From positions 1 to 32,335 of the forward strand of contig CALEVZ010000072.1 in assembly GCA_937924755.1 (NCBI GenBank): DNA of 32,335 nt. Direction: 5' to 3'. The DNA is from an uncultured bacterium (lineage in GTDB: Bacteria; Acidobacteriota; Thermoanaerobaculia; Thermoanaerobaculales; Thermoanaerobaculaceae). The position numbers were made by a program, and so were the translations under genes. The first letter of the stretch is position 1. Every line of letters starts with the position of its first letter. Below the pieces are notes generated by a model. It was given only the letters and a program-made list of their open reading frames with translations, was not told where the DNA came from and did no database searches. This document shows positions 50-25,347 of the stretch, piece after piece.

Positions 50-481
50 TCAGTCGCGGATGGTGATGGCGCCGGTGCTCAGCAGCTCCTCGAGCAGGGC
101 CAGGCAGGCGTGGCCGGTCATGGCGAAGGGGTCGAGGATGGCGCGTTCGGAAAAGCGCAGGATGACGCCGGTGTTGATGCGGTTCAAGTTGACGCAGCCC
201 ATCCGCCAGGAGGCGAAGCGCCGCTCGCTCACCTCGGCGTATTCGAGGAGGGTCACGTCACGGTGGCGCGGGTCGGCGACGATGGCGTTGTAGAGGGAGT
301 TGACGGCGGCGCGGCCGCCCTCGATGACCTGCAGGAACACGTTGCCCGGCGAGTAGGTGCAGAGCAGGCCGGTGATGCCGTGCTCCTGGTTGTGCTTCTG
401 GGAGTGTTGCAGGATGCCGCCGACCAGGGCGTCGTCGATCTCCTGGGTGGCGCGGCTCGCGTAGAGAAGTCGTACCAGCAT
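50..481 (-). CDS. BLUF-domain blue-light photoreceptor protein (143 aa)
   Basis: A short stand-alone BLUF (sensor of blue light using FAD) protein. The ATG at 481 is preceded by AGGAGG, and the protein begins MLVRLLYASRA. Flavin-pocket residues are where the family has them: Tyr7, Asn31 (within KHNQEHGITG), Gln51 (FLQVIEG) and Trp92/Met94 (SWRMG). The conserved DPRH loop lies near residue 70. BLUF domains sense blue light through a hydrogen-bond switch around Tyr and Gln. After the roughly 95-residue core only about 45 residues remain, so there is no attached EAL, cyclase or DNA-binding domain, and signalling must go through a protein partner. It lies 13 bp downstream of folE on the same strand, so the two are very probably co-transcribed, and it is divergent from a diguanylate cyclase gene. 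The family call is firm; the output is unknown. Confidence 0.9.
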   Translation of the reverse strand: MLVRLLYASRATQEIDDALVGGILQHSQKHNQEHGITGLLCTYSPGNVFLQVIEGGRAAVNSLYNAIVADPRHRDVTLLEYAEVSERRFASWRMGCVNLNRINTGVILRFSERAILDPFAMTGHACLALLEELLSTGAITIRD

Positions 482-494
482 GGCCCGGGTCCTC

Positions 495-1232
495 CTAGTC
501 GTGGCGGTCGGTGAGCAGCGACAGGAACTCGCGACGCAGCGTGGCGTTTTTGAGGAAGGCCCCACGCATGACGCTGTTGGTCATCTTGGAGTCCATGTCC
601 TTCACTCCGCGCCACTGCATGCAGTAGTGGTCGGCCTCCATGACGATGGCCAGGCCGTCGGGCTGCATCTTGTCCTGCAGCAGGTCGGCGAGCTGGATGA
701 TCGCCTCCTCCTGAATCTGCGGCCGGGTCATCACCCACTCCACCAGGCGGGCGTACTTGGAGAGTCCGATGAGGGCGGAGTGCTCGTTGGGCAGAACGCC
801 GACCCAGATGCGGCCGATGATCGGGCAAAGGTGGTGGGAACAGGCGCTGCGCACGGTGATCGGGCCGACGATCATCAACTCGTTGAGACGGCGGACGTTG
901 GGGAACTCGGTGATGGGCGGCGCGGGGGCGTAGCGGCCGGCGAAGACCTCCTGCAGGTACATCTTGGCGACCCGGCGGGCGGTGTCGCGGGTGTTGTGGT
1001 CGCTCGAGGTGTCGATGACCAGGGCCTGCAGGACTTCCTCCATCCGGGCAGCCACTTCCTCTTGCAGGGCCTCCAGCTCGCCCTCCTGGATGAAGGCGGA
1101 GATGTTGTCGTTGGCGTGGAAGCGGGCGCCGGCGGCGAGAATGCGGGCGCGGATTCGCTGGGCGACGAGGGGCGTCGAGTGGGGCTTTTGGGGGGATAGG
1201 TCCTCCTCCTGAGGCTGGGGCTGAAAGGCCAT
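495..1232 (-). CDS. folE: GTP cyclohydrolase I FolE (245 aa)
   Basis: Converts GTP to 7,8-dihydroneopterin triphosphate, the first step of folate/pterin synthesis, in the cytoplasm. The zinc ligands of the family are present: Cys131 and His134 in ACSHHLCP and Cys204 in HYCMQWRGV. The helical TARRVAKMYLQEVFAGRY segment (about residues 84-101) and the LSKYARLVEW segment (about 157-166) are typical. The N-terminal 55 or so residues are an extension beyond the catalytic core. The ATG at 1232 was chosen because GAGGAG stands just upstream; the reading frame runs 18 codons further back without another such site. The gene is followed after 13 bp by the BLUF gene, suggesting a common mRNA. Tetrahydropterin production next to a flavin photoreceptor is noteworthy, but a functional link is only inferred. 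Confidence 0.93.
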   Translation of the reverse strand: MAFQPQPQEEDLSPQKPHSTPLVAQRIRARILAAGARFHANDNISAFIQEGELEALQEEVAARMEEVLQALVIDTSSDHNTRDTARRVAKMYLQEVFAGRYAPAPPITEFPNVRRLNELMIVGPITVRSACSHHLCPIIGRIWVGVLPNEHSALIGLSKYARLVEWVMTRPQIQEEAIIQLADLLQDKMQPDGLAIVMEADHYCMQWRGVKDMDSKMTNSVMRGAFLKNATLRREFLSLLTDRHD

Positions 1233-1251
1233 GGCCAATCTCCTCAAAAAA

Positions 1252-1260
1252 AGCGTAGCA
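1252..1260 (-). promoter_or_regulatory. Probable extended -10 promoter of folE
   Basis: Read on the minus strand this is TGCTACGCT, an extended -10 (TGn + TACGCT), about 20 bases before the folE start. No clear -35 is seen at 17 bp. Transcription would begin near 1245, leaving a short leader that contains the GAGGAG site. Confidence 0.4.
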
Positions 1261-1298
1261 CGCGCCGGGGCAGGGGAGCCGGCCAAGGCGAACGCCGT

Positions 1299-1326
1299 TT
1301 GCGGCTTTGCACGTGCCCGGTATGAT
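1299..1326 (+). promoter_or_regulatory. Probable promoter of the diguanylate cyclase gene
   Basis: TTGCGG (1299-1304), a 16-bp spacer and TATGAT (1321-1326) resemble a sigma-70 promoter. It would start transcription near 1333, ahead of the ATG at 1379. This argues against the upstream in-frame TTG at 1307 and ATG at 1322 as translation starts. Confidence 0.45.
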
Positions 1327-1378
1327 ACGAGACGGGAACAGGCAATTGTTGGAGGCCAGGAGACCTCAGCCGCAAGGG

Positions 1379-4276
1379 ATGTCGGGCCGGCGACGGTGGG
1401 CGCTAGCCGCCGCCCTGATGACCGGGATAATCGCCGCGGCCCTGGCCGGTGAGCGCCAGTTTGCCGTGCGCCGCTGGACGGTCAACCAGGGGCTGCCCCA
1501 GAATTCGGTGACCGCCATCCTTCAGGATGAGGAGGGGTACCTCTGGATAGGCACCTTTGGCGGCCTGGCCCGCTTCGATGGGCGAACTTTCAAAGGTATC
1601 CCCACTCGCGGCCCCGGGACGCCCCCCCTAGCGCGGGTGCTGGCGCTGCATCAGGGGCCCGGCGGGCGTATTTGGGTGGGAACGGAAGGTGCCGGGCTGC
1701 TGGTGGTGGAGGGCGACTGCCTAGTGGTCCCTGCCGGGGTGCCGCCGCTCCCGGGTGAGACCGTCCATTCCCTCTGGGAGCGGGGGGAGGGGTCGCTCTG
1801 GCTGGGAACCGCGAGTTCGGGGCTCCTGCGGGTGGCTGGAGGGGAGGTGCGCCGGTGGGGGGATGCCGCCGGGGTGCGCGAGAACGTCGGCGCGGTGCTG
1901 CCCGTGGACGAGATGAACCTGGTGGTGGCCACCGGAGCGACCCTAATGGTGGTTTCCGAGACGCGGCCGGAGGGTTCCCGGATTCTGCTGGGCGACATCC
2001 TGGTTCACGCCCTCACCAAGGATCGGGACGGGTCGCTACTGGTCTCGACGATGGGCCAGGGTCTTCTCCGTGTACCCCACCAGGGCGAGGTGGAGCAGCT
2101 GCTGCCCCCGAAGATCCGGCACGGGGAGTACACCTGCGCCGCGCGGGATCCTTGGGGGAGGGTGTGGGCCGCCGTGGGGGGAAGCGGCGTGTTCAGCGTG
2201 GAAGACTCCACCCTGCGGCTGGTCGCTACCCCGGCCCGGCCGGGGGAGTCGTTCCGCGCCATGACCGCCGACCGGGAGGGGAACCTGTGGCTGGGCTCCG
2301 ACGGCGGCGGGCTGGTGCAGCTGGTGCCCGCCTCCTTCAGCATGATTGGTCGTGCCCAGGGGTTGCCGGAAGAGGTTATTCACCCGGTGGCAGAGGGGGC
2401 CGATGGCGCCCTGTGGGTGGGGGCGGGGTGCGCGGGCATCGTGAAGATCGCCGGCGATGACGTCACCGTGGTGGGGCGCGAGGCGGGGCTGGGCGCCGAC
2501 TCCTGCGTGTACTCCCTGTGGCCCCGGCGTGACGGCTCGATGCTGGCGGCGGAATACCGGGGGGAGGTGTGGACCGTCCGTGGGGAAAAAGTGATCCGGC
2601 ACCCCGCCTCTCCCATACCGCTGCCCACCGCGCTCCTGGAGGATCGGGCCGGGGCGGTGTGGGTGGCCACCCGGCACAGTGGGGTGCACCGCATCGAGGG
2701 TGGCCGGCGACGTGCCTTCACCGCCGCCGATGGGCTACCCACCAACGAAGTGGCCGCGCTCGTCGAGGATGAGGACGACAGCCTGCTGGTGGGCACCGCC
2801 CAGGGGGTTGGCGTCATCCGTGGAGAGCGGGCCTTTCCCCTGACCACCACCGGGGACCCCATGCCCCGGGCGGTGCGGGCTCTGCTGCGGGAGGGACCGC
2901 GGCTGTGGATCGGCAGCTACGGTGACGGCCTGGCGGTGGTGGAGCAGGGCAGGTTGTTTCGTTTCACTTCGCAGCACGGCCTCCCCGAGGGTGTGGTGTC
3001 GTTCCTGCACCGGGACGAGGTGGGGTTCTTGTGGTGGACGGGCAACCGCGGGGTGCACCGTGCCCGCGTGCGAGAGCTGGTCGAGGTGGCGAGGGGAGTG
3101 CGGCGGTCGGCCATCGTGCGCTCCTTCGGGGAGGAGGACGGCCTGGCCTCCGCCGAAACCAACGGCGGGTTCTCACCGGCGGGTTGGGTGTGCCGCAACG
3201 GCCGGCTGCTCATTCCCACCCCGCGCGGGCTTGCCGGGGTGGACCCGCGCCGGCTGGCAGCCACCCCTTCCCCTCCGCTGCCGCGTCTGGGGGAGGTCCT
3301 GCTGGACGGGGTCCCGGCTGCGGTGGTCGGCAGGGAGTTGAGAATCCCGCCGGGCACCCGTCGTATTCAGGTGACCGTGGAAGCACCCACCTTCCGTGCC
3401 CCAGAGCAGCTGCGCCACTTCACACGCTTGCAGGGGTTTGATGACGAGTGGGTGGACGGGGGAAATGACCCCGTCTCGACCTTCACCAACTTGCCCCGGG
3501 GTCGCTACATTTTCCAGGCTCGCACTGCCAACGAGGCAGGGGAGGCGAGTCCCGAGGTGAGCCTCCTCACCCTGCGGGCGCTGCCGCACTTCTACCAGCG
3601 ACGAGATGTAGGGGTGGCAGCCGTCGTGGCACTAGGGCTGCTCGTTGCCACGGGAATCGCCGGTCGCACGGCGTCGCTGCGGCGGCGGGCGCGCGATTTG
3701 GAGCGCCAGGTGGCCCAGCGCACCGAGGAGCTGCGCGTCGCCAACGCCCGCCTGGAAAAACTCGCCAGCACCGACCAGCTCACCGGTCTGCCCAACGCTC
3801 GCACCTTTCGTGAGCGACTGGAGGTGGCCTGGGCAGCGGCGCGACGGGAGCACAGCTGGGTTTCCCTCATCATGCTGGACGTGGATCACTTCAAGGCCTA
3901 TAACGACACCTTCGGCCACCCGTCGGGCGACCTGTGCCTGCGCCGCGTTGGCGCGCAGCTGGCCGCTTCCTTGTACCAGGCGAGCGACCTGGCGGCACGC
4001 TACGGAGGCGAGGAGTTTGCCATCCTGCTGGCGGGGGCGACAGAGCAGGCGACGGCCCCAGTGGCGGAACGGGTGCGGGCGGCCGTGGAGTCCTTGTTCA
4101 TCCCCCACCCCAGCTCGCCGGTGGCCGCCCATGTGACCATCAGCGCCGGGTGTGCCAGTGCGTATCCAGCGGCGGGGGGCAGCCCGGAGGAACTGATCGC
4201 CGCCGCCGACGCCGCCCTCTATGAGGCCAAGCGAAGCGGGCGCAACCGGGTTGTGGCGGCTGCCATCGGGGCTTGA
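1379..4276 (+). CDS. Membrane-anchored beta-propeller (Reg_prop/Y_Y_Y) diguanylate cyclase (965 aa)
   Basis: Predicted to make cyclic di-GMP from GTP in response to an extracytoplasmic signal. Order of parts: a signal peptide or N-terminal anchor (MSGRRRWALAAALMTGIIAA); many two-component-regulator propeller blades with the pattern GxLWxGTxxGGLxR (about residues 25-620); a Y_Y_Y immunoglobulin-like domain (about 670-740); one transmembrane helix (about 743-762); a short coiled coil (RARDLERQVAQRTEELRVANARLEKL); and a GGDEF domain. The active-site GGEEF is at residues 876-880, preceded by LDVDHFKAYND, so catalysis should be intact. The inhibitory I-site RxxD five residues before GGEEF reads QASD, so product inhibition at this site is probably lost. 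ATG 1379 starts directly at the signal peptide and lies downstream of the likely promoter; its Shine-Dalgarno (AGGAG at 1358) is rather far away, so the start is moderately sure. The gene is divergent from folE-BLUF. Confidence 0.88.
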   Translation: MSGRRRWALAAALMTGIIAAALAGERQFAVRRWTVNQGLPQNSVTAILQDEEGYLWIGTFGGLARFDGRTFKGIPTRGPGTPPLARVLALHQGPGGRIWVGTEGAGLLVVEGDCLVVPAGVPPLPGETVHSLWERGEGSLWLGTASSGLLRVAGGEVRRWGDAAGVRENVGAVLPVDEMNLVVATGATLMVVSETRPEGSRILLGDILVHALTKDRDGSLLVSTMGQGLLRVPHQGEVEQLLPPKIRHGEYTCAARDPWGRVWAAVGGSGVFSVEDSTLRLVATPARPGESFRAMTADREGNLWLGSDGGGLVQLVPASFSMIGRAQGLPEEVIHPVAEGADGALWVGAGCAGIVKIAGDDVTVVGREAGLGADSCVYSLWPRRDGSMLAAEYRGEVWTVRGEKVIRHPASPIPLPTALLEDRAGAVWVATRHSGVHRIEGGRRRAFTAADGLPTNEVAALVEDEDDSLLVGTAQGVGVIRGERAFPLTTTGDPMPRAVRALLREGPRLWIGSYGDGLAVVEQGRLFRFTSQHGLPEGVVSFLHRDEVGFLWWTGNRGVHRARVRELVEVARGVRRSAIVRSFGEEDGLASAETNGGFSPAGWVCRNGRLLIPTPRGLAGVDPRRLAATPSPPLPRLGEVLLDGVPAAVVGRELRIPPGTRRIQVTVEAPTFRAPEQLRHFTRLQGFDDEWVDGGNDPVSTFTNLPRGRYIFQARTANEAGEASPEVSLLTLRALPHFYQRRDVGVAAVVALGLLVATGIAGRTASLRRRARDLERQVAQRTEELRVANARLEKLASTDQLTGLPNARTFRERLEVAWAAARREHSWVSLIMLDVDHFKAYNDTFGHPSGDLCLRRVGAQLAASLYQASDLAARYGGEEFAILLAGATEQATAPVAERVRAAVESLFIPHPSSPVAAHVTISAGCASAYPAAGGSPEELIAAADAALYEAKRSGRNRVVAAAIGA

Positions 4277-4372: not shown

Positions 4373-5137
4373 TCACGGGGCAGGGCGAGGCAGTTTCGGC
4401 CGCAGGGTGGCCAGGCCGCCGTCCACCCCGAGAATCTGGCCGGTCACCCACGCCTGCTCGGGGTCGAGGAGCCACGCCAACGCCGCGGCCACATCTCGCG
4501 GGGTGCCGAGGCGGCCCAGGGGGTGCATGGCCAGGGAGGCTGCGCGGGCGGTTTCCGAGGCCAGCAGGCGCGTCGTCAGGGGCGTTTCCACGAGGCCCGG
4601 CGCCACCGCGTTGACCCGGATGCGGGAAGGAGCGTAGGTGGCCGCGGCGGCCAGGGTGAGGCCGATGACCCCCCCCTTGGCGGCGGCAATGGCCTCGTGG
4701 TTGGCGAAGCCGGTGCGGGCCGCCGCGGTGGACACCAGGGCGATGGATCCTCCCCTCGGGAGCATGGCGCGGGCAGCGGCCCGCACGCAGGCGAAGGCAG
4801 AGGTCAGGTTGGCGGCGAGGGTGGCCTGCCAGTCGGCTTCGGAGGTGACGTGGGCGGGCTTTAAGACCAGCGAGCCGACGCAGTTGGCAACGCCGTCCAG
4901 GCCTCCCAGGCGGGCGACCGCCTCGTCCACCACCCGATCCACCTCGGAAAACGAGGTGGCGTCGGCGACGGCGCTGGCCGCGTCCAGCTCGCCGGCCAGG
5001 GCGGCCAGCGCGTCAGCCCGGCGCCCGCAGAGGAACAGACGGGCGCCCGAAGCGGCCAGGCGCCGCGCCAGGGCGCTGCCGATGCCACCCGTGGCGCCGA
5101 GGACGAGAAAGGCAGGGATGAGAGATGTGCCGCTCAT
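4373..5137 (-). CDS. Short-chain dehydrogenase/reductase (SDR) family protein lacking the catalytic Tyr (254 aa)
   Basis: A Rossmann-fold SDR: the cofactor loop GATGGIG is at residues 14-20, Asn110 lies in LAANLTSAF, Ser136 in VSTAA, and the C-terminal NAVAPGLVETPLT and VTGQILGVDGG segments are typical. The usual Tyr of YxxxK is missing: the motif reads I150-A-A-A-K154 within NHEAIAAAKGG, so the Lys is kept but the proton-donating Tyr is Ile. The protein may therefore bind NAD(P)H without acting as a classical alcohol/carbonyl oxidoreductase, or it may use another residue. ATG 5137 has GAGGAG upstream. It appears to be a single-gene unit; its substrate cannot be told from sequence. Confidence 0.85.
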   Translation of the reverse strand: MSGTSLIPAFLVLGATGGIGSALARRLAASGARLFLCGRRADALAALAGELDAASAVADATSFSEVDRVVDEAVARLGGLDGVANCVGSLVLKPAHVTSEADWQATLAANLTSAFACVRAAARAMLPRGGSIALVSTAAARTGFANHEAIAAAKGGVIGLTLAAAATYAPSRIRVNAVAPGLVETPLTTRLLASETARAASLAMHPLGRLGTPRDVAAALAWLLDPEQAWVTGQILGVDGGLATLRPKLPRPAP

Positions 5138-10793: not shown

Positions 10794-11129
10794 ATGATCA
10801 CCGGGCAACGAAGGTTCCCGCGGATTCCCTCGGAAAACACCGTGCTGGTCAAGAGCGCGGGTGAGGGGGCCGAGGAAGGGTTCGCCAAGACCACGGTTAT
10901 GGGGCTAGGTGGGTGCAGCTTCGTGACCGACACGCCACTGCAACCCGAAGAGCGAGTGGAAGTGTACATCGCCGTGCGCGGCAAGGTGGTCGTCGCCCTG
11001 GGTCGGGTGGTGTGGACCGCTGAGCGCCCGGGTGGCCGGCGCGAGGCAGGCATCGAGTTCCTGGAGATCACCGACGAAGATCGCCAGGTGGTTGAGGACC
11101 TTTTCAGGCCCGTCGAGGAACCCGTTTAG
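10794..11129 (+). CDS. PilZ-domain protein, possible c-di-GMP receptor (111 aa)
   Basis: A single PilZ domain. The N-terminal arginine motif appears as QRRFPRIPSENTVLVK, matching the RxxxR element that grips cyclic di-GMP. The second element, normally (D/N)xSxxG, is instead VMGLGGCSF, so the Asp/Asn and Ser are absent and binding may be weak or altered. The rest follows the fold: PLQPEERVEVYIAV, then VVVALGRVVWTAE and REAGIEFLEI. The ATG at 10794 has AGGAGGG 11 bp upstream. It converges with the yigZ-like gene; the two stops overlap. A diguanylate cyclase is encoded in the same window, but a direct pairing is not shown. Confidence 0.8.
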   Translation: MITGQRRFPRIPSENTVLVKSAGEGAEEGFAKTTVMGLGGCSFVTDTPLQPEERVEVYIAVRGKVVVALGRVVWTAERPGGRREAGIEFLEITDEDRQVVEDLFRPVEEPV

Positions 11130-11506
11130 GAGCCTGCTCGGGGGCCGGCGATCACCGCCGCGCCGGCGGCACGAAACGCCCGCACCACCCCGCCCACCCC
11201 CAGCTTCACCCCGCCGAAAACCCGGGAAACGAGGAGGCCCCCCTCCAGCTCGTGGTGGCGCAACAGCTCCAGCAACACCCGGCCGGGGTGGCCCACCTCG
11301 CCGTCGTCGCGGGAGGCCTCGACGATCCCTCCCGAGTGGTCTCGCCAGCGCGCCGCCCAGCAGTGGTGGCGGGCCCTGCGGTAAAGGGCCCTGTACTGGG
11401 CAACGGTGCGCTCCACGTCCGCTTCCGAAGTGACAGGGAAAAGGCGGGCGAAAAAGCGCGACCTCTCGACGGTGAGCTTCGCTTCGACGACGTCGGTGAC
11501 TCGCAC
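11126..11506 (-). CDS. YigZ/IMPACT (UPF0029) family protein, single-domain form (126 aa)
   Basis: Matches the N-terminal domain of the YigZ/IMPACT family: ERSRFFARLFPVTS, then a DA.H..wA-like stretch (RARHHCWAARW), the RDDGEVGHPG motif and VSRVFGGVKLGVGGVVRAF. The family is usually about 200 residues with a second C-terminal domain; here only the first domain is present and the gene ends at 11126. DDGEP.GTAG has become DDGEVGHPG. The start is a GTG at 11506. The function of the family is unclear; the eukaryotic IMPACT relative regulates translation. Its 5' end lies 60 bp from the displaced prs fragment on the same strand, so it was probably the direct downstream neighbour of prs before the island arrived. 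Confidence 0.72.
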   Translation of the reverse strand: MRVTDVVEAKLTVERSRFFARLFPVTSEADVERTVAQYRALYRRARHHCWAARWRDHSGGIVEASRDDGEVGHPGRVLLELLRHHELEGGLLVSRVFGGVKLGVGGVVRAFRAAGAAVIAGPRAGS

Positions 11507-11565: not shown

Positions 11566-11803
11566 TTCACCTGTACTCGGGGAAGAGCACGCTGATGCTC
11601 TCGCGGTGATGGATGCGGCGGATGGCCTCGGCGAACAGCGGCGCTACCGACACCACCCGCACCTTGGGCGAAAACTCCACCGGCTGGTTTTCCACCGTGT
11701 CGGTGACCACCAGCGTCTCGATGGGTCCGGCGTCGAGACGGGCCATGGAGGAGGGCGCGAACACGGCGTGCGTTACCGCCGCCAGCACCGCACGGGCGCC
11801 GCG
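11566..11803. repeat. Left 238-bp direct repeat (displaced prs 3' end)
   Basis: Aligns without gaps to 17668-17905 (constant offset 6102). I count 9 mismatches in 238 positions, all between 11573 and 11690; the 113 bp from 11691 to 11803 are identical. The similarity stops abruptly after the GCG at 11803. Only two mismatches change the protein (final W to Y); the other seven are silent. Confidence 0.95.
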
Positions 11804-11824
11804 GGCCAGAAACCACCTATCCAT
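11567..11824 (-). pseudogene. Truncated prs 3' fragment (ribose-phosphate pyrophosphokinase C-terminus)
   Basis: An 85-codon open frame whose last 77 or so residues equal the C-terminal quarter of the prs product encoded at 17669-18607, from RGARAVLAAVTHAVF to SISVLFPEYR. It lacks the N-terminal domain, the ATP-binding region and the PRPP loop, so it cannot be an active synthase. Its first eight residues (MDRWFLAR) come from island-side sequence, and the ATG at 11824 directly follows the stop of the actin-like ATPase gene, apparently by chance. I interpret it as the original host prs 3' end, pushed aside when the island inserted. It might still be translated by coupling. Confidence 0.9.
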
Positions 11825-13711
11825 CTATTGATCACGTAGTACGTGGGGAGGAAGCTCGTCCTCCTCCAGGCGTCGGCGTCGACGGTCCGAATAGTCCACA
11901 GGATCCACGGCTTCGGGCAGTTCGAACGTCGCGAAGTCGAGGCCGTAGCTCAAACCATAGGCCACGAGGGCGAGTCCAAGGTCGTCGAGGTCGTCAATCC
12001 CTTCCAGGTCCGAAGGGATGCCGGGATCAACCACTTCAAACGGCTTCAAAGCGTTTTTTCGCAAAACGTTACCAGTAAAGTGTCGCTTGATCGCCGAGAT
12101 TCGACATCCCCCGCCTACCAGAAACAGGCGGCAGTCTTGCCAGTTTGATAACTTCGCATCTTTGGGATAGGCCGCCTTGAAGGCATCGGACAGTACCTCA
12201 TAAATACTTTCTAGAAGTGGCCTTACGTCCTTCGGCATCCGCTTGGCCAGAAACACGTCCTCGAACCCTCGTACCTCGAGTTGGTTGGGTAGCCCGTGGG
12301 CCTTCGCAATGAGGCGATCCAGGGCATCTGCTCCGGGGGGTCGTGCGGCAGCGCCCCAAAAAGAGAACTTGGCCTTCCGCCATATCTGGAAATGTCTGTC
12401 GAATTCCTCCACGATGCGGAAGAAGCATGCGTCCGTGGACCCGGCTCCGACATCGACGGATGCGTACAGCCCCGGGGGAACCCGGGGCGACTGGAAGGCC
12501 CACATCAGACTGGCAGCGGCTTCCGGGAGAAGCCACTGGGCAACCTCGTTCGGCCGAGACTGGCCCACCGCTGAGGCCGAGGATACGGCCATCTCTCGAG
12601 CGGTGCTGATCGGAACCCCATTGGCCAGTTGTGGGGTCCCTTTCTGGTACAGCCATCGGGCGCGGGCGATCATGAGCCAGTAGGAGTTCAGGGGATCGCC
12701 GCTTGCCAGAGACGCCACCGGAACACCCATGGTCATCGTCAGGCGTGGATCGAAATCCAGGCTCGCCGCGTACTCCTCGATCGCCCGCCCGCCGAGCTGG
12801 ATGAGGTGAAGCACCGACAACATGGCCAGGTCAGCCACCGAGATGCCCTCAGGCGGGTGGGTGTCAGCCTGAAAATAGGCATCGCTTGGAAAAGCGGCGC
12901 GAATCTTGAGAGATGGATACACTCTCGCCCTCGGAACCTGCGCTCGCAGCCAGGCTTCGTCACCGAAGTAGAGCCGATCGTTTTCCCACACCACCAGCGC
13001 AGGCACCCGGAAATCCCCGTCGCGACCGTAAGGCCTGACGAGGAACGACTTCTGCTCGAGTCTCGACGAAGCGTCGCGAAACACCAGCTTGGAGGTACTC
13101 GTGCCGTAGTCGATCCCGAGCTGAATGATTCGGCGGGGCCGGGCCGGAGGAGGCTGCTGGACATCCACCCGCGGGGCAGCATCTGTTAGCGGCGCAGCGG
13201 GGTGAATGACTGGCGGTGGTGGCGCCGGGGAGGCAATCGGCACTCGTTGGTCCGGCGCTCCAGGGTCCGGAGCACGGTGATCGGGCGGCGAATCGACGGT
13301 GAACGCGGTGGCGACGATGCCGCGGGGGCACAGTGAGGTTGGCGCCGCCAGGGCCTCTCCGACTGGCGTGGACGTCGTTACCTGGTGAACCACCTCGCCA
13401 TTCCCAACCGCCAACGGAACGCCTGACGGCCGAGATGCCGGTGCCGATTCGACAACTGGATTCGCACCGACTTGCGGTTCCGGCGGTGTACACCTCACCA
13501 CCGCCTGTCTTTCGTCACCCTCTGGAGGTGGGGCAGAGGGGGATGGGGGTGGTGGACCCGCCGGGCGCTCGCCGGCTGCCTCCCTCGGCGCCACCGATGG
13601 CACCCATGGCGGCTCCGCCGCTGACCCGCTGGCAGCTCCACGTGGTGACGGCCCGCGCCGGCGCCATAGCCGAGCGGTGAGCATTTCGAGCCATCGCTTC
13701 AGCCAGCCCAT
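11825..13711 (-). CDS. Actin/Hsp70-like ATPase with long Pro-rich N-terminus (628 aa)
   Basis: The C-terminal 430 residues carry the three nucleotide-binding signatures of the actin-Hsp70 superfamily: phosphate-1 DYGTSTSK (201-208), phosphate-2 DVGAGSTD (420-427) and the adenosine motif LVGGGCR (531-537). A helical tail and an acidic/basic end follow (RRRRRLEEDELPP). The first 190 or so residues are low-complexity, rich in Pro, Ala and Ser, and start with a basic amphipathic segment (MGWLKRWLEMLTARLWRRR) that could touch membrane or nucleic acid. It lacks the canonical DnaK substrate-binding domain, so it is not a housekeeping chaperone. The gene begins 4 bp after the helicase stop, with AGGTGA inside the helicase end as ribosome site, implying co-translation. 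It ends 21 bp from the left repeat. It is probably an ATP-driven switch or scaffold working with the helicase. The superfamily call is firm; the function is unknown. Confidence 0.85.
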   Translation of the reverse strand: MGWLKRWLEMLTARLWRRRGPSPRGAASGSAAEPPWVPSVAPREAAGERPAGPPPPSPSAPPPEGDERQAVVRCTPPEPQVGANPVVESAPASRPSGVPLAVGNGEVVHQVTTSTPVGEALAAPTSLCPRGIVATAFTVDSPPDHRAPDPGAPDQRVPIASPAPPPPVIHPAAPLTDAAPRVDVQQPPPARPRRIIQLGIDYGTSTSKLVFRDASSRLEQKSFLVRPYGRDGDFRVPALVVWENDRLYFGDEAWLRAQVPRARVYPSLKIRAAFPSDAYFQADTHPPEGISVADLAMLSVLHLIQLGGRAIEEYAASLDFDPRLTMTMGVPVASLASGDPLNSYWLMIARARWLYQKGTPQLANGVPISTAREMAVSSASAVGQSRPNEVAQWLLPEAAASLMWAFQSPRVPPGLYASVDVGAGSTDACFFRIVEEFDRHFQIWRKAKFSFWGAAARPPGADALDRLIAKAHGLPNQLEVRGFEDVFLAKRMPKDVRPLLESIYEVLSDAFKAAYPKDAKLSNWQDCRLFLVGGGCRISAIKRHFTGNVLRKNALKPFEVVDPGIPSDLEGIDDLDDLGLALVAYGLSYGLDFATFELPEAVDPVDYSDRRRRRLEEDELPPHVLRDQ

Positions 13712-13715
13712 TGAC

Positions 13716-16700
13716 TCACCTCTCGCTCCCGCCGCCGGTCACCTGTACGAGAGCGAGCGCAAGCTCTTCGCTTTCCAGATGCACACGATCCATCGCTAGC
13801 GCCTCGTGCCGCAAACGCTCGATCTCCCGTGTGGCCTTCTCCAGACGAGTCTTCGCCATACGGATTGGAAACGCCGGTGCCTGTCCGCGTATCAGACTCG
13901 CCAGATTTCTCTGCGCCTGGGCGGCGCGATGCTGCCAGGCCGCCAGCTCAGTTGCCCTAACTCGGGTGACCCGAGCGCGCAGCAGCGCTGCCTCGCGCTC
14001 CTCGGCGACTGCCCGGAGACGCTCGAGTTGCTGCTCCAGGGTTACCCGGGCCAGCTCCACCGCATTCGGCTCCAGACGTGGCAAGCTCGCCACCTCTTGG
14101 CATTGCCCCAGGAGCTCAACCAAGAGGCCCTCGGCTTCGTCGGCCGAAACCAGGGAACCTCGTGCCAGCGAGAAAACGATTGGTACAAGCTCAGCTCGCC
14201 TGCGCGGTTCCGGGATTTCAAAGCGAACTATCTGCAACAAATAGAGACCAGATGGCAGCGCCGAGCAGGCAACCTTTAAAGCGTAGGTGTTCGTTGCCCG
14301 TATCGCCCCCTTGGAGACTTGTCGGCAGGCGAACTGCACCAGGGGATGGCGCCGATGAATGAACTCCAGCCGGCGCAGTGTTTCCGCGGTTTCAATGGAA
14401 ACCGTGGCGGAGAAAGGTCCCTGCCGGATGAGGGCCGCGACTTGCACCGCCTCCTGGGTGTTGGAAAGCTCCGCGAGGAGATCCGACGCCGCTTCGGGCG
14501 GCAAGTGAAGGCGGGCGACACCGTCGGCAATGCCCGCAGGAACCTCGGACCCGGGATAGCGTTGGCGGTAGAAATCCTGCAGAAGCCACGCGATATCGGA
14601 GGGTTGCGCCATCCTGCGACCGCCAACGAGGGCATTGATCTCATCCAGGTAAGCCTGGTCGGCCGCCACAAGAGCATCGGAAACCCGCTCGAGATGCCGG
14701 GCCTCTTCCCGTCGGCGTTCAATGGCTCCGGCTGCATCCTCGATTCTTCGCGCTTCCTCATCCGGTGAAAGCCCACCTGCCAGCGCTTCGATGGCAATTT
14801 CTTGGACCATCTCGCCGAGTATTGGGTCGAGATCGCCGATGCTCTCCTCGAAGAGGCGGATGCGTTCATACAAGCGGAGCAGGATTCTTTCCTCGACGGA
14901 GTTCTTGATTACCAGGTTGACGATGGAGATACGAGACGCGAGCTGCCCTATGCGATCCAGCCGGCCAATCCTCTGCTCCACCACCATCGGGTTCCAGGGC
15001 AGGTCATAGTTGATGAGGACGGAGGAGCACTGCAGGTCAAGGCCCTCGCTGCCGACCTCCGAAGAGAGCAGGACGCGAATCTGCGGATCGTCACGAAATG
15101 CTTCGATCCGGATCTCGCGTTCCTCCATGGGGATACCACCGTGGATCAGGCGGTGCCCGATGCCGAGCTTCTCCAGCTTCGCGTCGAGATACTCGAGGGT
15201 CGCGCGAAAAAAAGCAAAAACAACAGCCTTGCGCGGTGGTCGATGATGTCGAGCATCATCCCACCAGACGCTATCGAAAACTCCCAGCAGTTTCTTGAGT
15301 TTGGAGTCCCTCGTCAAAGCTCTGAACGTCTGCCACCTGGCGACGAGTCTGTGCTCCAGCTCGGCCCAGGTGCGGGGAACGGGATCTTCACCGTAGCCGT
15401 CCTTACTCGAGAGCTCCCAGCCCAGTTCCTCGAAGTCGTCCAGCTCGTCGCCGCGCCTCGAGGAGGTGCGGTGGCTCACACGAGCCAGTGCCGCGGGCAG
15501 ACAGCTGGCAGCCTGGCGATGGGCCGTGGCAAAGGCCATGCGAGCGCCCCACGAAGTCAGGTCGGGTAGAAGGGTCAGAGCCTCAAACGCCTCTTGCTCT
15601 TCCGCGGAGAGGGAGACGACGATGGACTGGGGGTCGCGCTTCGGGCGCAACGTTTGAGTGTCTCGTTTCAGCGTCCGGGTCAGCACCGCATTGGTAAACG
15701 AAAGGCTCGCCAGGTCCCGTTCCAGATCGATGCGCTCGCTGCGGGTGAGGGTTTCCAACTGGCGACACCTGCTCACGACCGAGATCACGAACGGATCCGC
15801 GCGGGATTGCTCCAGGTGGGGTTGGGAGAGGTATTGCTCGAGCTTTGCCACCGCGTCACCGCTTCCGCCCGACCCCGATCGAACCACTCGCAGAGCGTCC
15901 ATCAGCGGCGCGGTGCCCTGACGTTGCACCTCGAAGACATCGAAACTGGAGAAGCTGTCAGGGTCCAACAGGTGCAGGAGCCAGAAGAGGTCCTCCGGCC
16001 CCGTCTGCAGCGGTGTCGCGGTGAGAATGAGCATGGCCTCGCTGCACTCGGCGATGGTGCGGGTCATACGGTGCTGTAGCGTCCGCGGATTGCGAGCCCG
16101 GTGCCCTTCGTCGAAGATTGCCAGGTCCAGCGCCGGCCTCAAAACGTCGAACTTCTTCTGAATATCTTCGGGCCGCACCTGCTCGTAGGACATGATCCAG
16201 TTGAACTCGGCTTCCTTACCGCTCTCGAAATCGTCCAGGAACCTCCGAAGTTCTCGAGTACTGGGCAGGTCGAAGCGCTCATCAAAACGCCGTGCCAGTT
16301 CGGTCTTCCACTTGGTTCGAAGACGAGCCGGAACGACCACCAGGACCCTCGCCAGCCGCGTGCGTGCCCGCAACTCGCGCAACACGTAACCGGCCTCGAT
16401 GGTCTTTCCGAGCCCCACCTCGTCGGCGATGAGAATGCGCCAGCGAGGGTTATCAATCAGCTTGAGCAGGGGCTTGAACTGATAGGGCAGAAACTGAGCT
16501 CTCGCCGTCCCGAAGGACGTTGCAATGGCGGAGGGAGGGCGATTGAGGCGCTCCAGGGTCATCGCCATCCGAAAGTCCTGGGCGCGTGCCAGACTGCCGC
16601 GGGCCAGGTCGCGCCATGGGTCGGCCACCTCGGGCAAGAGCTCCAAGACCTCCGCCGCGAGAGTGACCAGGCGCGTGCCGAACTGAACCTGGCATTGAAA

Positions 16701-16805
16701 CTCCTGCAGCTGCTCGCTCCAGACGGTCTTGTGCACGCGTCCGACGTCAGCCGGCTGGTCCTTGCGGCGAACCACCGAACCATTGGGAAAAACTTGAGCT
16801 GTCAT
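13716..16805 (-). CDS. SNF2/RapA-type DNA helicase/translocase (1029 aa)
   Basis: A superfamily 2 ATPase. Motif I DEVGLGKT (128-135), motif II DEGH (232-235), motif III TATP (262-265), a motif IV-like AVVFAFFRATLEYL (about 527-540), motif V SSEVGSEGLDL (581-591) and motif VI QRIGRLDRIGQ (611-621) are all intact. The order and spacing resemble RapA/HepA and the SNF2 helicases of defence islands. The N-terminus (FPNGSVVRRKDQPADVGRVHK) resembles a small RapA-like beta domain. After residue 640 there is a roughly 380-residue C-terminal part that I cannot assign, ending in a long coiled coil (about 910-1010). I see no nuclease motif. Its start ATG (16805) overlaps an upstream stop as ATGA, and the downstream ATPase gene follows after 4 bp. 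Likely role: ATP-driven movement on DNA, perhaps remodelling or sensing foreign DNA (inference). Confidence 0.9.
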   Translation of the reverse strand: MTAQVFPNGSVVRRKDQPADVGRVHKTVWSEQLQEFQCQVQFGTRLVTLAAEVLELLPEVADPWRDLARGSLARAQDFRMAMTLERLNRPPSAIATSFGTARAQFLPYQFKPLLKLIDNPRWRILIADEVGLGKTIEAGYVLRELRARTRLARVLVVVPARLRTKWKTELARRFDERFDLPSTRELRRFLDDFESGKEAEFNWIMSYEQVRPEDIQKKFDVLRPALDLAIFDEGHRARNPRTLQHRMTRTIAECSEAMLILTATPLQTGPEDLFWLLHLLDPDSFSSFDVFEVQRQGTAPLMDALRVVRSGSGGSGDAVAKLEQYLSQPHLEQSRADPFVISVVSRCRQLETLTRSERIDLERDLASLSFTNAVLTRTLKRDTQTLRPKRDPQSIVVSLSAEEQEAFEALTLLPDLTSWGARMAFATAHRQAASCLPAALARVSHRTSSRRGDELDDFEELGWELSSKDGYGEDPVPRTWAELEHRLVARWQTFRALTRDSKLKKLLGVFDSVWWDDARHHRPPRKAVVFAFFRATLEYLDAKLEKLGIGHRLIHGGIPMEEREIRIEAFRDDPQIRVLLSSEVGSEGLDLQCSSVLINYDLPWNPMVVEQRIGRLDRIGQLASRISIVNLVIKNSVEERILLRLYERIRLFEESIGDLDPILGEMVQEIAIEALAGGLSPDEEARRIEDAAGAIERRREEARHLERVSDALVAADQAYLDEINALVGGRRMAQPSDIAWLLQDFYRQRYPGSEVPAGIADGVARLHLPPEAASDLLAELSNTQEAVQVAALIRQGPFSATVSIETAETLRRLEFIHRRHPLVQFACRQVSKGAIRATNTYALKVACSALPSGLYLLQIVRFEIPEPRRRAELVPIVFSLARGSLVSADEAEGLLVELLGQCQEVASLPRLEPNAVELARVTLEQQLERLRAVAEEREAALLRARVTRVRATELAAWQHRAAQAQRNLASLIRGQAPAFPIRMAKTRLEKATREIERLRHEALAMDRVHLESEELALALVQVTGGGSER

Positions 16806-17377
16806 ACCTGTCCCGCACCCGGTGCCGCAGCACGGTCCGTCTCAGGCTCAGGGTCCACGTGCGCCTCCCCACCAGGGACGGAGCGCAGATCGGCAAGGAA
16901 CTCGGAGGCGAGGGCGACGCCGTTTACCCGCAGGTGATCGCGGGTGCGGGTGGACGCTACACTCGAGAGGCGGCGCTCGATCTCGACAGAATTCTTGGTA
17001 TGTGGCCACCGCGTAGCGCTGCAGCTGTCCCGCAAGGGTGGCGAGGACTTACTGTGACCTGTGGCGGAAGCCGGCGGGTAGGCGGGGGACAAGCCGGCAT
17101 GATCCCCAGCTTTTCCGGGAGCCGCGTAACGTTGCGGCTCTGCCAGATCATTCATCTGGCAGAGCTGCAGCCTTCCCACGGGAGAGTAACGGGACAAGAG
17201 CATCATGAGTTGCCTCGATGGCTTTCGGGTCCACAGGTTTCCCTGCTCCAATTCAGGCAAGACGATGTTCCGTTTGGAGATGGTGAGGAGGGCTGCGGGT
17301 ACTCTCATGACCTCTCCAATCGCTTCGCCGCAAGGACGAGGATCGCTGACTGCTCGACAGCTTAGCTTTTCAACCAA
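16802..17377 (-). pseudogene. Degraded or uncharacterised ORF coupled to the helicase gene
   Basis: An open frame of 191 codons whose stop overlaps the helicase start (ATGA). Only its last 65 or so codons look coding: NSVEIERRLSSVAST through VNGVALASEFLADLRS uses mostly G/C third positions. Upstream the frame becomes Ser/Pro/Arg-rich and crosses a perfect hairpin. In an adjacent frame, about 17050-16990 reads VLATLAGQLQRYAVATYQ, which joins smoothly to NSVEIERR if one base is removed near 16990, but a stop lies just before that piece. I read this as the 3' remnant of a former third island gene, frameshifted and truncated. The alternative is a genuine short leader protein. I recognise no family. 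Confidence 0.35.
17137..17165. repeat. Perfect 12-bp inverted repeat (hairpin or operator)
   Basis: GCTCTGCCAGAT (17137-17148), loop CATTC, then ATCTGGCAGAGC (17154-17165): two perfect 12-bp arms with a 5-nt loop. There is no T-run after either arm. It lies about 330 bp upstream of the helicase start, where an operator, an attenuator or a recombination site could be. Confidence 0.7.
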
Positions 17378-17667
17378 CCTGGCGCCGCGGGCGTCCGAGT
17401 TGTAGCTGAGATGATTGTAGACGAGACGGCCGACCTGGGTGGCAAGGGCCTTGAACGGTCAATTCTCGAGGCCAGCATGGTGCGTTCCGGGTAGACAGCT
17501 CACCGGGACGCGCCGGCGTTTCACCTTCGTCGTTTCACCGCCGTTCAGATGAGGCGTCGCCTGGGCCCCCACGGCTTGAGTTGACAGTAGTGTGTAAACA
17601 TGGTGGCGAGAATTACAGCCCCATCGGTTCTCCGAGATTCCCAGGGCGAGGTGCCCCTGGCTCCTTT
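17378..17667. other. Non-coding right end of the island
   Basis: No convincing gene on either strand. TTGACA occurs on the plus strand at 17581-17586 without a good -10 at the right distance. The octamer GTTTCACC occurs at 17518 and 17532. I see no integrase fragment or clear promoter for the leftward island genes. Confidence 0.5.
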
Positions 17668-17905
17668 TTCACCTCCACTCGGGGAAGAGCACGCTGATGC
17701 TCTCGCGGTGATGGATGCGGCGGATGGCCTCGGCGAACAGCGGCGCCACGGAGACGACGCGCACCTTGGGCGAGAACTCCACCGGCTGGTTCTCCACCGT
17801 GTCGGTGACCACCAGCGTCTCGATGGGTCCGGCGTCGAGACGGGCCATGGAGGAGGGCGCGAACACGGCGTGCGTTACCGCCGCCAGCACCGCACGGGCG
17901 CCGCG
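17668..17905. repeat. Right 238-bp direct repeat (3' end of intact prs)
   Basis: Partner of 11566-11803. This copy is continuous with the rest of prs and supplies its last 78 or so codons and stop. Similarity ends at 17905 inside the prs reading frame. Confidence 0.95.
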
Positions 17906-18607
17906 CTCAAGCAGCGCCTCGGCGGCGGCGTTCAAGGTGCTGGCGGAAATGGTGAAGTCGTCGACGATCAGGGCGGTGCGGTCGCGCACCTCGCCGATGA
18001 TCTCCACCGAGGTGACCTTTTCCTCGTGCCCATCCCGCACCTTGTCGGCGATGACCAGGGGGGCGCCCAGGTGGGAGGCGTAGCGGCGGGCCTTTTTGGC
18101 GAAGCCGGCGTCGGGGGCGACCACCACGAAGCCCTCTGGGAGGAGGGGGCGCACGGCGTCGCAGAGGATGGGCAGGGCGTAGAGGTCGTCCACGGGGACG
18201 CGAAAGAAACCCTGGATCTGGGGGGCGTGCAGGTCCATGGTGACCAGGCGGTCAGCCCCCGCCGCCTCGATGGCGTCGGCGCACACCCGCGCCCGGATGG
18301 ACACCCGCGGCTCGTCCTTCTTGTCCCCCTTGGCGTAGGAGAAGTACGGCACCACCGCGGTGACCGAGGCGGCCGAGGCGCGCTTTAAGGCATCGATCCA
18401 GAAGAGCAGCTCCATGAAGGTGTCGTTGGCGGGGAAGGCGGTGGTTTGCACCACGTAGGTGTGGCGTCCGCGCACGTTGGTGAGCACCCGCACGAAGAGG
18501 TTGCCCTCGGAAAAGCGCAGCGTTTCGCCGGCGGCCACCGATATGCCGAGAGCTGCGGCGATGCGACCAGCCAGGCGCCGGCTGCCGGAGCCGGCGAAGA
18601 GCAGCAT
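17669..18607 (-). CDS. prs: Ribose-phosphate pyrophosphokinase (312 aa)
   Basis: Transfers pyrophosphate from ATP to ribose 5-phosphate, giving PRPP for nucleotide, His and Trp synthesis. Family blocks present: VVPYFSYAKGDKKDEPRVSI, TMDLHAPQIQGFF followed by VPVDDLYALPIL, VAPDAGFAKKARRYA, and the PRPP loop VDDFTISASTLN. The PRPP loop reads DDFTISAST rather than the commoner DDxxDTxGT, and the KDxP region is KKDEPR, so it belongs to a divergent prs branch. The start ATG at 18607 has AGGAAGGGGA upstream; the frame is open further but without a ribosome site. Its last 237 bases are duplicated at 11566-11803, across the island. The neighbour beyond the start is the divergent mlaE-type operon. Confidence 0.92.
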   Translation of the reverse strand: MLLFAGSGSRRLAGRIAAALGISVAAGETLRFSEGNLFVRVLTNVRGRHTYVVQTTAFPANDTFMELLFWIDALKRASAASVTAVVPYFSYAKGDKKDEPRVSIRARVCADAIEAAGADRLVTMDLHAPQIQGFFRVPVDDLYALPILCDAVRPLLPEGFVVVAPDAGFAKKARRYASHLGAPLVIADKVRDGHEEKVTSVEIIGEVRDRTALIVDDFTISASTLNAAAEALLERGARAVLAAVTHAVFAPSSMARLDAGPIETLVVTDTVENQPVEFSPKVRVVSVAPLFAEAIRRIHHRESISVLFPEWR

Positions 18608-18797
18608 CGCGTCCCCTTCCTGCCCGCGCCGGGACGCCTCGAATGCCGTGCGGAGTCCCACAGTGGGAGAGTGTAGCTGAAGCCAAGGTCCGCGGTGCGG
18701 GTCGGCGGTGCTAGGCTGCATCCATGGCTGTTCCCGGGCGTGGTGGGACAGGTCGTCGGCGCGGCGAATCCGCTGGGCGGCGGGGGCGGGAGGGGCA

Positions 18798-23550: not shown

Positions 23551-25347
23551 GTGGACGGTGCCCCCCGTGAGCCACCGCCCACACCGCTGGTGTGGCGCCA
23601 GGCGGCGGTGTTGGGCAGCCTGTGGGCAGCCTCCGAGATCCTGCTGGGCAGCTTCCTGCACAACCTGCGGGTGCCCCTGCGCGGGCATGTTCTCACCGCC
23701 ATCGCCATCGCCATCCTGGCGGGTGGGTCGCGGCTGTGGCGGCAGCGGGGGGTGGTGTGGCGCGCCGGCCTCATCGCCGCCGCCATGAAGTCGGTGTCCC
23801 CCTCCGCCGTGCTGCTGGGGCCGATGGTGGCCATCGCCATGGAGGGGTTCCTGTTCGAACTGGGCCTGGCGCTGGTCCGGGGCGGCCTCGGGGGCGCGGT
23901 ACTGGGCGGGGCGCTGGCCATGTCCTGGACCTTTGCCCATCAACTGGGCAGCCTTTTGATCACCTACGGCCTCAACCTGGTGGAGGTCTACACCCGCCTG
24001 GTGGCGCTGGCCGAGAGGCAGCTGGGGCCAATTCCCCTGGGCGCCTGGGGCCCACTGACCGCCCTGGCGGTGCTCAACCTGGTGGTTGGGGCGGTGGCCG
24101 CTGCCCTGGGGTGGCGGGCGGCGAGCCAGCCCGCGGCCGCCATGGCGCAGACGATGGGAGGGACACCCCAAGCGTTTCCGGCGCCGCGGGCCCGCACCCC
24201 CATCACCCCCCACCTGGGGGCGCTGGGAGCGGTGGCGGTGGCGTTGCCGCTGGGCTTGCTGGCACTGGCCCGGCTGCCCTTGCCCGCTGGCGCCGCGGTG
24301 TTGGCCGCGCTTTTGGGGCTGGGAGCGTTGCGCTGGGGCAAGGCGCTCCAACGGCTGGCGAGACCGCGCTTCTGGGTGGGCATCCTGCTGCTCACCGGGG
24401 TGACGGCGGTGGCGTTCCAGGTGGGGAGGGCGGGGCCAGAGGCGGCTCTCGAAGGGTTACGGGTGGCGGCGGCCATGACCCTGCGCGCCATGCTGGTCAC
24501 CGCAGGCTTCGCCGCCGTCGGGGTGGAGCTGGCCAACCCCCGCCTGCGCCGCTGGCTGGCGCGGTGGGGGGCCGGGCGGCTTCTGGCCGCCGGCGAGACG
24601 GCCTTCGCCACCTTACCGGCGATCATTGCAGCGATGCCGCCGGCCCGCACCATCCTGCGCCACCCCCTGCGCGCGGTGAGCGCCCAGGTGCAGCGTCTGG
24701 ATGCCTGGCTGCTCCAGCTGGATAAGCAAACTCCACCGGCCCGGGCGGTGATCATCACCGGGGAAACCGGCAGTGGCAAGACCACACTGCTGGCGGCGGT
24801 GGTGGAGGCGCTGCGGGCTCGTGGGGTGCGCCTGGGGGGGGTTTTGGCGCCGGGGAGCTGGCGCGACGGCCGGAGGTGGGGCTTCGAGGTGGTGGAGGTG
24901 GGGTCAGGTCGTCGGGAACCCCTGGCCGCCCGCGAGGGCCCACCCGATTGGCTGCCCGCCGGGCAGTTTCGGGTCAACCCGGCGGGGTTGGAGGTGGGGC
25001 GGGCGGCCCTGCGCGCCGCCCGGGAGGGCGGCGCGCAGGTGGTTATTGTGGACGAGGTGGGCCCCTGGGAGCTGGCCGGGCACGGCTGGGCGGCGGAGCT
25101 GGATACCCTGGTGGCGCAGCCGCCGCCCCTGCTGCTGCTGGTGGTGCGGCGGGCGAGCCTCGCGGCAGTGCTGGCCCGCTGGCCCCTGGTGGCGCTGGCG
25201 GTGTACCCGGCGGCGGGAAGCGACCCGGCGAAAGTGGCGGGAGAACTGGCAGGGCTGGTGGAGACCGAGGCCACCTTGGGGCGGGGCGAGCACCCGGGCA
25301 GGCAGCGCCCGAGAGGTGCCGTCGGCGCCGGTGGCGGGCAACCTTGA
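23551..25347 (+). CDS. Fusion of polytopic membrane domain with THEP1-like nucleoside-triphosphatase (598 aa)
   Basis: The first 195 or so residues hold about five membrane helices and look like an ECF-type S component (LWAASEILLGSFLHNLRVPLRG, SAVLLGPMVAIAMEGFLFELGLAL). Residues 220-390 hold more helices and end in a region resembling the T component/CbiQ coupling segment (ETAFATLPAIIAAMPPARTILRH). The C-terminal 200 residues are a THEP1/NTPase_1 domain: Walker A GETGSGKT (404-411), LGGVLAPGSWRDGRRWGFEVVEV, and Walker B VVIVDEVG with Asp501. THEP1 proteins are soluble NTPases; here one seems joined to a membrane module, suggesting a one-polypeptide energy-coupled uptake or sensing device. The GTG start at 23551 follows the C69 gene by 15 bp. 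The S/T-component likeness is by eye only; the THEP1 call is firm. Confidence 0.75.
   Translation: MDGAPREPPPTPLVWRQAAVLGSLWAASEILLGSFLHNLRVPLRGHVLTAIAIAILAGGSRLWRQRGVVWRAGLIAAAMKSVSPSAVLLGPMVAIAMEGFLFELGLALVRGGLGGAVLGGALAMSWTFAHQLGSLLITYGLNLVEVYTRLVALAERQLGPIPLGAWGPLTALAVLNLVVGAVAAALGWRAASQPAAAMAQTMGGTPQAFPAPRARTPITPHLGALGAVAVALPLGLLALARLPLPAGAAVLAALLGLGALRWGKALQRLARPRFWVGILLLTGVTAVAFQVGRAGPEAALEGLRVAAAMTLRAMLVTAGFAAVGVELANPRLRRWLARWGAGRLLAAGETAFATLPAIIAAMPPARTILRHPLRAVSAQVQRLDAWLLQLDKQTPPARAVIITGETGSGKTTLLAAVVEALRARGVRLGGVLAPGSWRDGRRWGFEVVEVGSGRREPLAAREGPPDWLPAGQFRVNPAGLEVGRAALRAAREGGAQVVIVDEVGPWELAGHGWAAELDTLVAQPPPLLLLVVRRASLAAVLARWPLVALAVYPAAGSDPAKVAGELAGLVETEATLGRGEHPGRQRPRGAVGAGGGQP

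What the first reader, a model, noticed from the sequence alone, without database searches (positions are those of the whole stretch)
11566..17905. Island inserted at the 3' end of prs, with a displaced prs tail as direct repeat
238 bp of the prs 3' end occur twice in the same orientation, exactly 6102 bp apart with no gaps: once completing prs (17668-17905) and once as an orphan (11566-11803). Everything between belongs to neither prs nor the downstream yigZ-like gene. In known gene-3'-end integrations the incoming element restores the target gene and pushes the old end away; this fits exactly. It implies prs was once directly followed by the yigZ-like gene. A prs 3' end as an insertion site is unusual compared with tRNA genes, and I see no recombinase.
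Basis: partly seen in the sequence, partly recalled or inferred. Interest (0 to 1): 0.85.

Follow-up and report, generated by a model that had tools for sequence, protein, structure and literature searches.

The report
Defence-like islet inserted at prs 3' end
A 6.1-kb foreign DNA piece carrying two defence-like genes appears to have inserted into the end of a PRPP-synthase gene, supplying a replacement gene end and pushing the old end aside, much as the E. coli prophage remnant e14 does in the icd gene.

Summary
238 bp of the prs 3' end recur ungapped 6102 bp away (96.2% identical, 9 mismatches) and nowhere else in the genome. The two tails differ in 8 codons, 7 of them synonymous. Five of those are consecutive third-position changes between long identical tracts. 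Drift of a dead copy does not readily give this (P 0.0003-0.016), so the tails most likely descend from two functional, diverged prs genes. Joining the flanks restores a 350-aa prs ending 60 nt before yigZ. The islet holds a RapA/DrmD-like SNF2 helicase and a divergent actin/Hsp70-type ATPase. Their GC3 is 0.73 and 0.68, against 0.91 for prs.

The anatomy matches e14/icd, which I measured as a control (165 bp, 9 synonymous and 2 nonsynonymous codon changes). No integrase lies in the islet, and no empty site or second case was found, because no congeneric genome is held.

One correction: this prs is not the lineage's ordinary prs. It is a laterally acquired second copy (65-74% identical to prs of other phyla); the native prs is on another contig. 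Verdict: a new instance of known gene-3'-end-restoring insertion, at a site I did not find described, with a sporadic, defence-associated cargo pair. The recombinase is unknown.

The parts
17669..18721 (-). second, laterally acquired prs (ribose-phosphate pyrophosphokinase); ORF 350 aa, likely true start near 18607
   Evidence: Pfam/NCBIfam; 61-74% identity (the best matches) to prs of Hydrogenedentota, Myxococcales, Roseiflexus, Actinobacteria; 41-47% to family and class prs, which include the native C1 copy
17668..17905 (-). in-frame prs tail, copy 1 of the direct repeat (attL-like junction)
11566..11803 (-). orphan (displaced) prs tail, copy 2 of the direct repeat (attR-like junction), frame intact
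11567..11824 (-). 85-aa open frame: ATG directly after the ATPase stop codon (TAGATG), 7 codons, then the orphan prs tail in frame
   Evidence: translation not shown
11825..13711 (-). islet gene 2: ASKHA-type (actin/Hsp70-like) ATPase, 628 aa, proline-rich N-terminal part
   Evidence: no Pfam hit; motifs GIDYGTSTSK, VDVGAGSTD, LVGGG with core residues invariant in 7 homologues; weak profile hits to DnaK, ParM and actin-like chains
13716..16805 (-). islet gene 1: SNF2-family helicase, 1029 aa, RapA/DrmD-like
   Evidence: Pfam SNF2-rel_dom and Helicase_C; PADLOC DrmD E=1e-151; below NCBIfam DISARM_DrmD cut-off; PDB RapA E=1e-42
16806..17667 (.). 862 bp between prs and the helicase with no recognisable gene; where an integrase would be expected
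   Evidence: ORFs in six frames without Pfam match up to E=10; unique in genome
17128..17174 (.). strong hairpin (21-nt arms, 5-nt loop) inside that gap
   Evidence: RNA fold z = -4.05
11126..11506 (-). yigZ-like gene (UPF0029), original downstream neighbour of prs
   Evidence: 60 nt from the prs stop in the joined empty site

Best explanation
A circular or circularised 6.1-kb DNA segment carrying [prs tail - SNF2 helicase - ASKHA ATPase] inserted by one reciprocal recombination inside the last 79 codons of a resident prs. The incoming tail completed prs. The original tail was pushed 6.1 kb downstream, where it still sits 60 nt before its old neighbour yigZ. Shown: the repeat, the intact reconstructed empty site, and a codon pattern that points to two functional, diverged prs genes as sources of the two tails. 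Inferred: that the insert was a mobile element with its own att-like prs tail (as e14 has an icd tail), that crossover fell in one of the identical tracts (most simply the 113 bp at the inner end), and that its recombinase was lost or acted in trans. The cargo is most likely an anti-invader pair, inferred from gene neighbourhoods.
For: Repeat unique in genome and ungapped. Similarity ends at the stop codon on one side and abruptly inside prs on the other. 7 of 8 codon differences are synonymous; P(<=1 nonsynonymous) is 0.0003-0.0008 if all changes arose in an unselected copy and 0.006-0.016 if shared with a selected prs; clustering of the synonymous changes has P about 1e-4. Joined flanks give a 350-aa prs without stops, 60 nt from yigZ. 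GC3 0.68 and 0.73 for the cargo against 0.91-0.92 for prs and 0.77-0.92 for most flanking genes. Cargo is sporadic: helicase relatives at E<=1e-60 in 6 of 297 phylum genomes including its own. Control e14/icd in MG1655 shows the same anatomy: 165 bp, 9 synonymous and 2 nonsynonymous codons, homology ending at stop+4 (PMC11148124).
Against: No integrase or relic in the islet. No empty site or second occupied site found. The target is a second prs, so restoring it need not have been essential. 113 bp of perfect identity at the inner end is longer than in e14 (11 bp) and needs low initial divergence or later gene conversion. One genus-singleton assembly; reads were not available.
Confidence: 0.68

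Rival explanations
1. Same geometry but RecA-driven: a non-replicating circle that happened to hold a prs tail from a related organism integrated by ordinary single-crossover homologous recombination (Campbell type). No dedicated att site is involved.
For: No integrase. Long perfectly identical tracts (113 bp inner end, about 69 bp outer) suit RecA. The site is not recurrent.
Against: The shared segment ends at the stop codon; a random chromosomal fragment from a relative similar enough to recombine would be expected to continue past it. Needs a fortuitous circle with just a gene tail.
Confidence: 0.2
2. No import of a tail: prs (or its end) was duplicated within this lineage, and the helicase-ATPase pair arrived between the copies by another route, or a tandem prs pair was cut down.
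For: Both copies are closest to each other; most of the 238 bp is identical.
Against: 7/8 synonymous with a five-codon block of third-position changes points to two selected genes, not a gene and a dead copy. No remains of a prs 5' part next to the orphan; the ATPase stop is 21 bp away.
Confidence: 0.08
3. Assembly artefact: two strain variants of the prs end were chained into one contig.
For: Single draft assembly (86 contigs). Elsewhere contigs do break at such repeats: C85 starts exactly at a 46-bp tRNA-Pro repeat, and a class relative breaks inside prs from strain variation.
Against: Chaining needs reads across the unique ATPase-to-orphan junction, which itself implies the duplication; contig is otherwise coherent; completeness 96.9%, contamination 0.47%.
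Confidence: 0.04

Closest known systems
Cryptic prophage e14 in icd, E. coli K-12 (Hill, Gray and Brody 1989, as cited in PMC11148124)
   Same: Insertion in the 3' end of a metabolic enzyme gene; element supplies a new C-terminus; displaced tail (icdC) as direct repeat; differences mostly synonymous; homology stops just after the stop codon; a restriction-type gene (mcrA) next to the displaced tail.
   Different: e14 is 15.2 kb with integrase and excisionase; repeat 165 bp with differences spread along it and only 11 identical bp at the inner end; target icd is the host's own gene. Here 6.1 kb, no integrase, 238 bp, 113 identical bp, target a second prs.
Integrase element at tRNA-Pro on contig C85 of the same genome
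   Same: Direct repeat of a gene 3' end (46 bp, 100%) flanking a small (about 4.4 kb) element.
   Different: Carries its own 419-aa tyrosine integrase; tRNA target; different cargo.
SNF2 helicase + ASKHA ATPase gene pairs in defence neighbourhoods
   Same: 1034-1077-aa SNF2 gene followed directly by a 504-680-aa ASKHA gene in G201, G320, G206, Shinella and Sphingobium plasmids.
   Different: Those pairs sit with HmaA, BrxC, a DpdE-like helicase, or a PLD-domain protein, or near a large serine recombinase (Shinella); here the pair is alone. The nearest pair (G293, 43% helicase) has a second SNF2 gene in front.

Membership tests
gene-3'-end-restoring integrated elements (e14/icd type) | direct repeat of the target gene's 3' end flanking the insert | tested here: met
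gene-3'-end-restoring integrated elements (e14/icd type) | element-borne tail keeps the target frame, mostly synonymous differences | tested here: met
   7 synonymous, 1 conservative (W/Y); control
gene-3'-end-restoring integrated elements (e14/icd type) | empty site exists in relatives | not testable with these tools
   genus has one held genome; no class genome searched carries this prs
gene-3'-end-restoring integrated elements (e14/icd type) | integrase gene in the element | tested here: not met
   no Pfam match in the 862-bp gap or the two cargo genes; could have been lost or supplied in trans
gene-3'-end-restoring integrated elements (e14/icd type) | excision as a circle | not testable with these tools
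   needs reads or PCR
DISARM (drmD) | DrmD at curated cut-off | tested here: not met
   328.8 bits against cut-off 610
DISARM (drmD) | drmA, drmB, drmC and methylase genes alongside | tested here: not met
   only two genes in the islet
Hsp70 (PF00012) | Pfam Hsp70 match | tested here: not met
   no match to E=5
ASKHA superfamily (actin/Hsp70/sugar kinase) | phosphate-1, phosphate-2 and adenosine motifs | tested here: met
   invariant G199 D201 G203 T204, D420 G422, G533-G535; weak hits to sugar kinase, DnaK, ParM
CoCoNuT Hsp70-like proteins (CnuD) | association with McrB-type GTPase | tested here: not met
   no such gene in the islet

The most novel reading that the evidence does not exclude
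The orphan tail is not debris but a third islet gene. Its ATG abuts the ATPase stop codon (TAGATG), so an 85-aa PRPP-synthase C-terminal peptide could be made by coupled translation and kept under selection, for instance to bind PRPP synthase subunits. That would make the islet a helicase-ATPase-PrsC system rather than a passive insertion.
Probability: 0.05. Interest if true: 0.65.

Novelty: new member of a known kind. Interest (0 to 1): 0.36.

Why it matters
It adds an insertion site for gene-end-restoring elements (the 3' end of prs) for which I found no report in the papers searched. It shows the codon signature by which such events can be recognised without an empty site or an integrase: near-synonymous-only divergence between a gene end and its displaced copy. 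It also shows a sporadic SNF2-ASKHA pair, seen elsewhere beside BREX and Hma genes, carried as a two-gene islet.

Tried and rejected
Integrase relic in the gap: six-frame ORFs without Pfam hits; the C85 integrase gives no meaningful match in the islet (the two Xer queries of that call were taken in a wrong reading frame and say nothing).

Second case of a displaced prs tail: G134 looked promising (tail with an 89-aa frame, prs body ending at residue 270), but it is a contig break from strain variation inside an intact prs. 80 relatives of this prs hold no displaced tail within the fetched flanks.

Mobile carriers: no prs relative in viral contigs. The prs-tail searches of phages and plasmids reported only matches under 60% identity; where the listed place carries an annotation it is a prs gene, but many listed records have none, so tail-only fragments were not excluded there.

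Other copies of the gap in the genome: none meaningful. Empty site by MlaE or YigZ synteny: MlaE has one clear orthologue in the family (G004, 60%), in an unrelated setting; PilZ and YigZ are neighbours in some relatives but in other arrangements. Literature for prs as integration site: nothing relevant. Structure prediction was not run, because non-window homologues could not be used and a single sequence would be weak.

Full report
OBSERVATION. The direct repeat is real: 11566-11803 and 17668-17905, 238 bp, no gaps, spacing 6102, 96% identity. A search of the whole 3.35-Mb draft genome finds only these two places. Aligning them base by base shows 9 mismatches in 8 of 79 codons. Counting codons from 0 at the inner end, 37, 43 and 48-52 differ synonymously and 76 is W in prs and Y in the orphan. 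113 bp at the inner end are identical. Similarity ends within about 5 nt of the stop codon and abruptly inside prs.

THE TWO TAILS PROBABLY COME FROM TWO WORKING GENES. If the orphan had drifted unselected, 9 substitutions should give about 6 nonsynonymous codons; one or none has P 0.0003-0.0008. If changes are shared between a selected prs and an unselected orphan, P is 0.006-0.016. The seven synonymous changes fall within 16 codons (P about 1e-4), five of them consecutive (P about 7e-5). The simplest reading (inference) is that the two tails were alleles from different lineages and that identical tracts around the patch reflect either little divergence there or later gene conversion.

THE EMPTY SITE. 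Joining the prs body (17906-18721) to the orphan tail (11567-11803) gives a 350-aa prs without stops, ending 60 nt before the yigZ frame. A natural empty site could not be found: the genus has one held genome, and the other class genomes searched hold only prs at 41-47% identity as their best matches.

A CORRECTION ON prs. The window prs is not the lineage's usual gene. The genome has another prs on contig C1 (49651-50577), 78-83% identical to the prs of family mates. The window prs is 46% identical to it, but 65-74% identical to its closest relatives in Hydrogenedentota, Myxococcales, Roseiflexus, Actinobacteria and others. It was therefore most likely acquired laterally. Its GC3 (0.91) matches the region, while the cargo has 0.68 and 0.73, which fits prs being resident before the islet arrived (inference).

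CARGO. The islet has two complete genes on the prs strand. 13716-16805 is a SNF2 helicase of the RapA/DrmD kind. 11825-13711 has no Pfam, NCBIfam or PDB sequence match on its own, but alignment with six homologues shows the ASKHA nucleotide-binding motifs, and the profile weakly finds sugar kinase, DnaK, ParM and actin-like chains. The pair recurs in the same order in G293, G201, G320 and G206 of the phylum and on Shinella and Sphingobium plasmids; a Leptolyngbya plasmid has an ATPase-like gene in front of the helicase instead. Neighbours include HmaA, BrxC, a DpdE-like helicase, UvrD and PD-(D/E)XK genes and a PLD-domain protein, and in Shinella a large serine recombinase 1.5 kb upstream. Helicase relatives at E<=1e-60 occur in 6 of 297 phylum genomes, the window's included. 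A defence role is inferred from these neighbourhoods; it was not tested.

MECHANISM. The geometry is that of one reciprocal crossover between a circle bearing a prs tail and the chromosomal prs. As a control I measured e14 in E. coli MG1655: a 165-bp icd tail duplicated 15204 bp apart, 9 synonymous and 2 nonsynonymous codon differences, homology ending 4 nt after the stop, in agreement with the literature (PMC11148124). The window case has the same anatomy but lacks an integrase. The 862-bp gap next to prs has no recognisable gene. Elsewhere in the genome Pfam Phage_integrase rings at two frames of about 300 aa (read as XerC/XerD by size) and at a 419-aa integrase on C85. The C85 integrase belongs to its own element at tRNA-Pro, with a 46-bp repeat. 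There is no large serine recombinase. The enzyme is therefore unknown, and RecA-mediated single-crossover integration remains possible.

RECURRENCE. No displaced prs tail was found in about 143 class genomes with a native prs tail or in 80 relatives of the window prs. One candidate, G134, was an assembly break. The prs 3' end is thus not a demonstrated hot spot, and the papers searched gave no report of it as an integration site.

ONE ODD FEATURE. The ATPase stop codon is directly followed by an ATG (TAGATG) that opens an 85-aa frame of 7 codons plus the orphan prs tail. It is probably a coincidence of the junction, but a coupled, translated peptide is not excluded.

VERDICT. Observation confirmed; interpretation right in outline, corrected on the identity of prs and left open on the recombinase. 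A new member of a known kind.

Noticed in passing
L190:1-4523 (contig C85 of the same genome): A small element of about 4.4 kb at the 3' end of tRNA-Pro: 46-bp direct repeat at 1-46 and 4447-4492, 419-aa tyrosine integrase at 269-1528 (-), and a 118-bp perfect duplication at 1655-1945. The contig starts exactly at the displaced tRNA end.
   Followed up: partly
window 17128-17174: Strong hairpin (12 perfect pairs at its core, z = -4.05) in the gene-less part of the islet; no Rfam match.
   Followed up: partly
window 17669-18721 and contig C1:49651-50577: Two prs genes in one genome, one native and one apparently acquired from another phylum. Family mates mostly have one.
   Followed up: partly
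L164, L165, L166, L163, L175, L177: A recurring two-gene unit, SNF2 helicase followed by a divergent ASKHA ATPase, in defence neighbourhoods (HmaA, BrxC, DpdE-like) and on plasmids; no Pfam model matches these ATPases at a meaningful score, and the two tested against PADLOC (window, L165) had none either.
   Followed up: partly
window 24546-24641: ARAGORN reports a tRNA-Arg inside a coding NTPase gene, without an Rfam tRNA match; probably a false positive.
   Followed up: no
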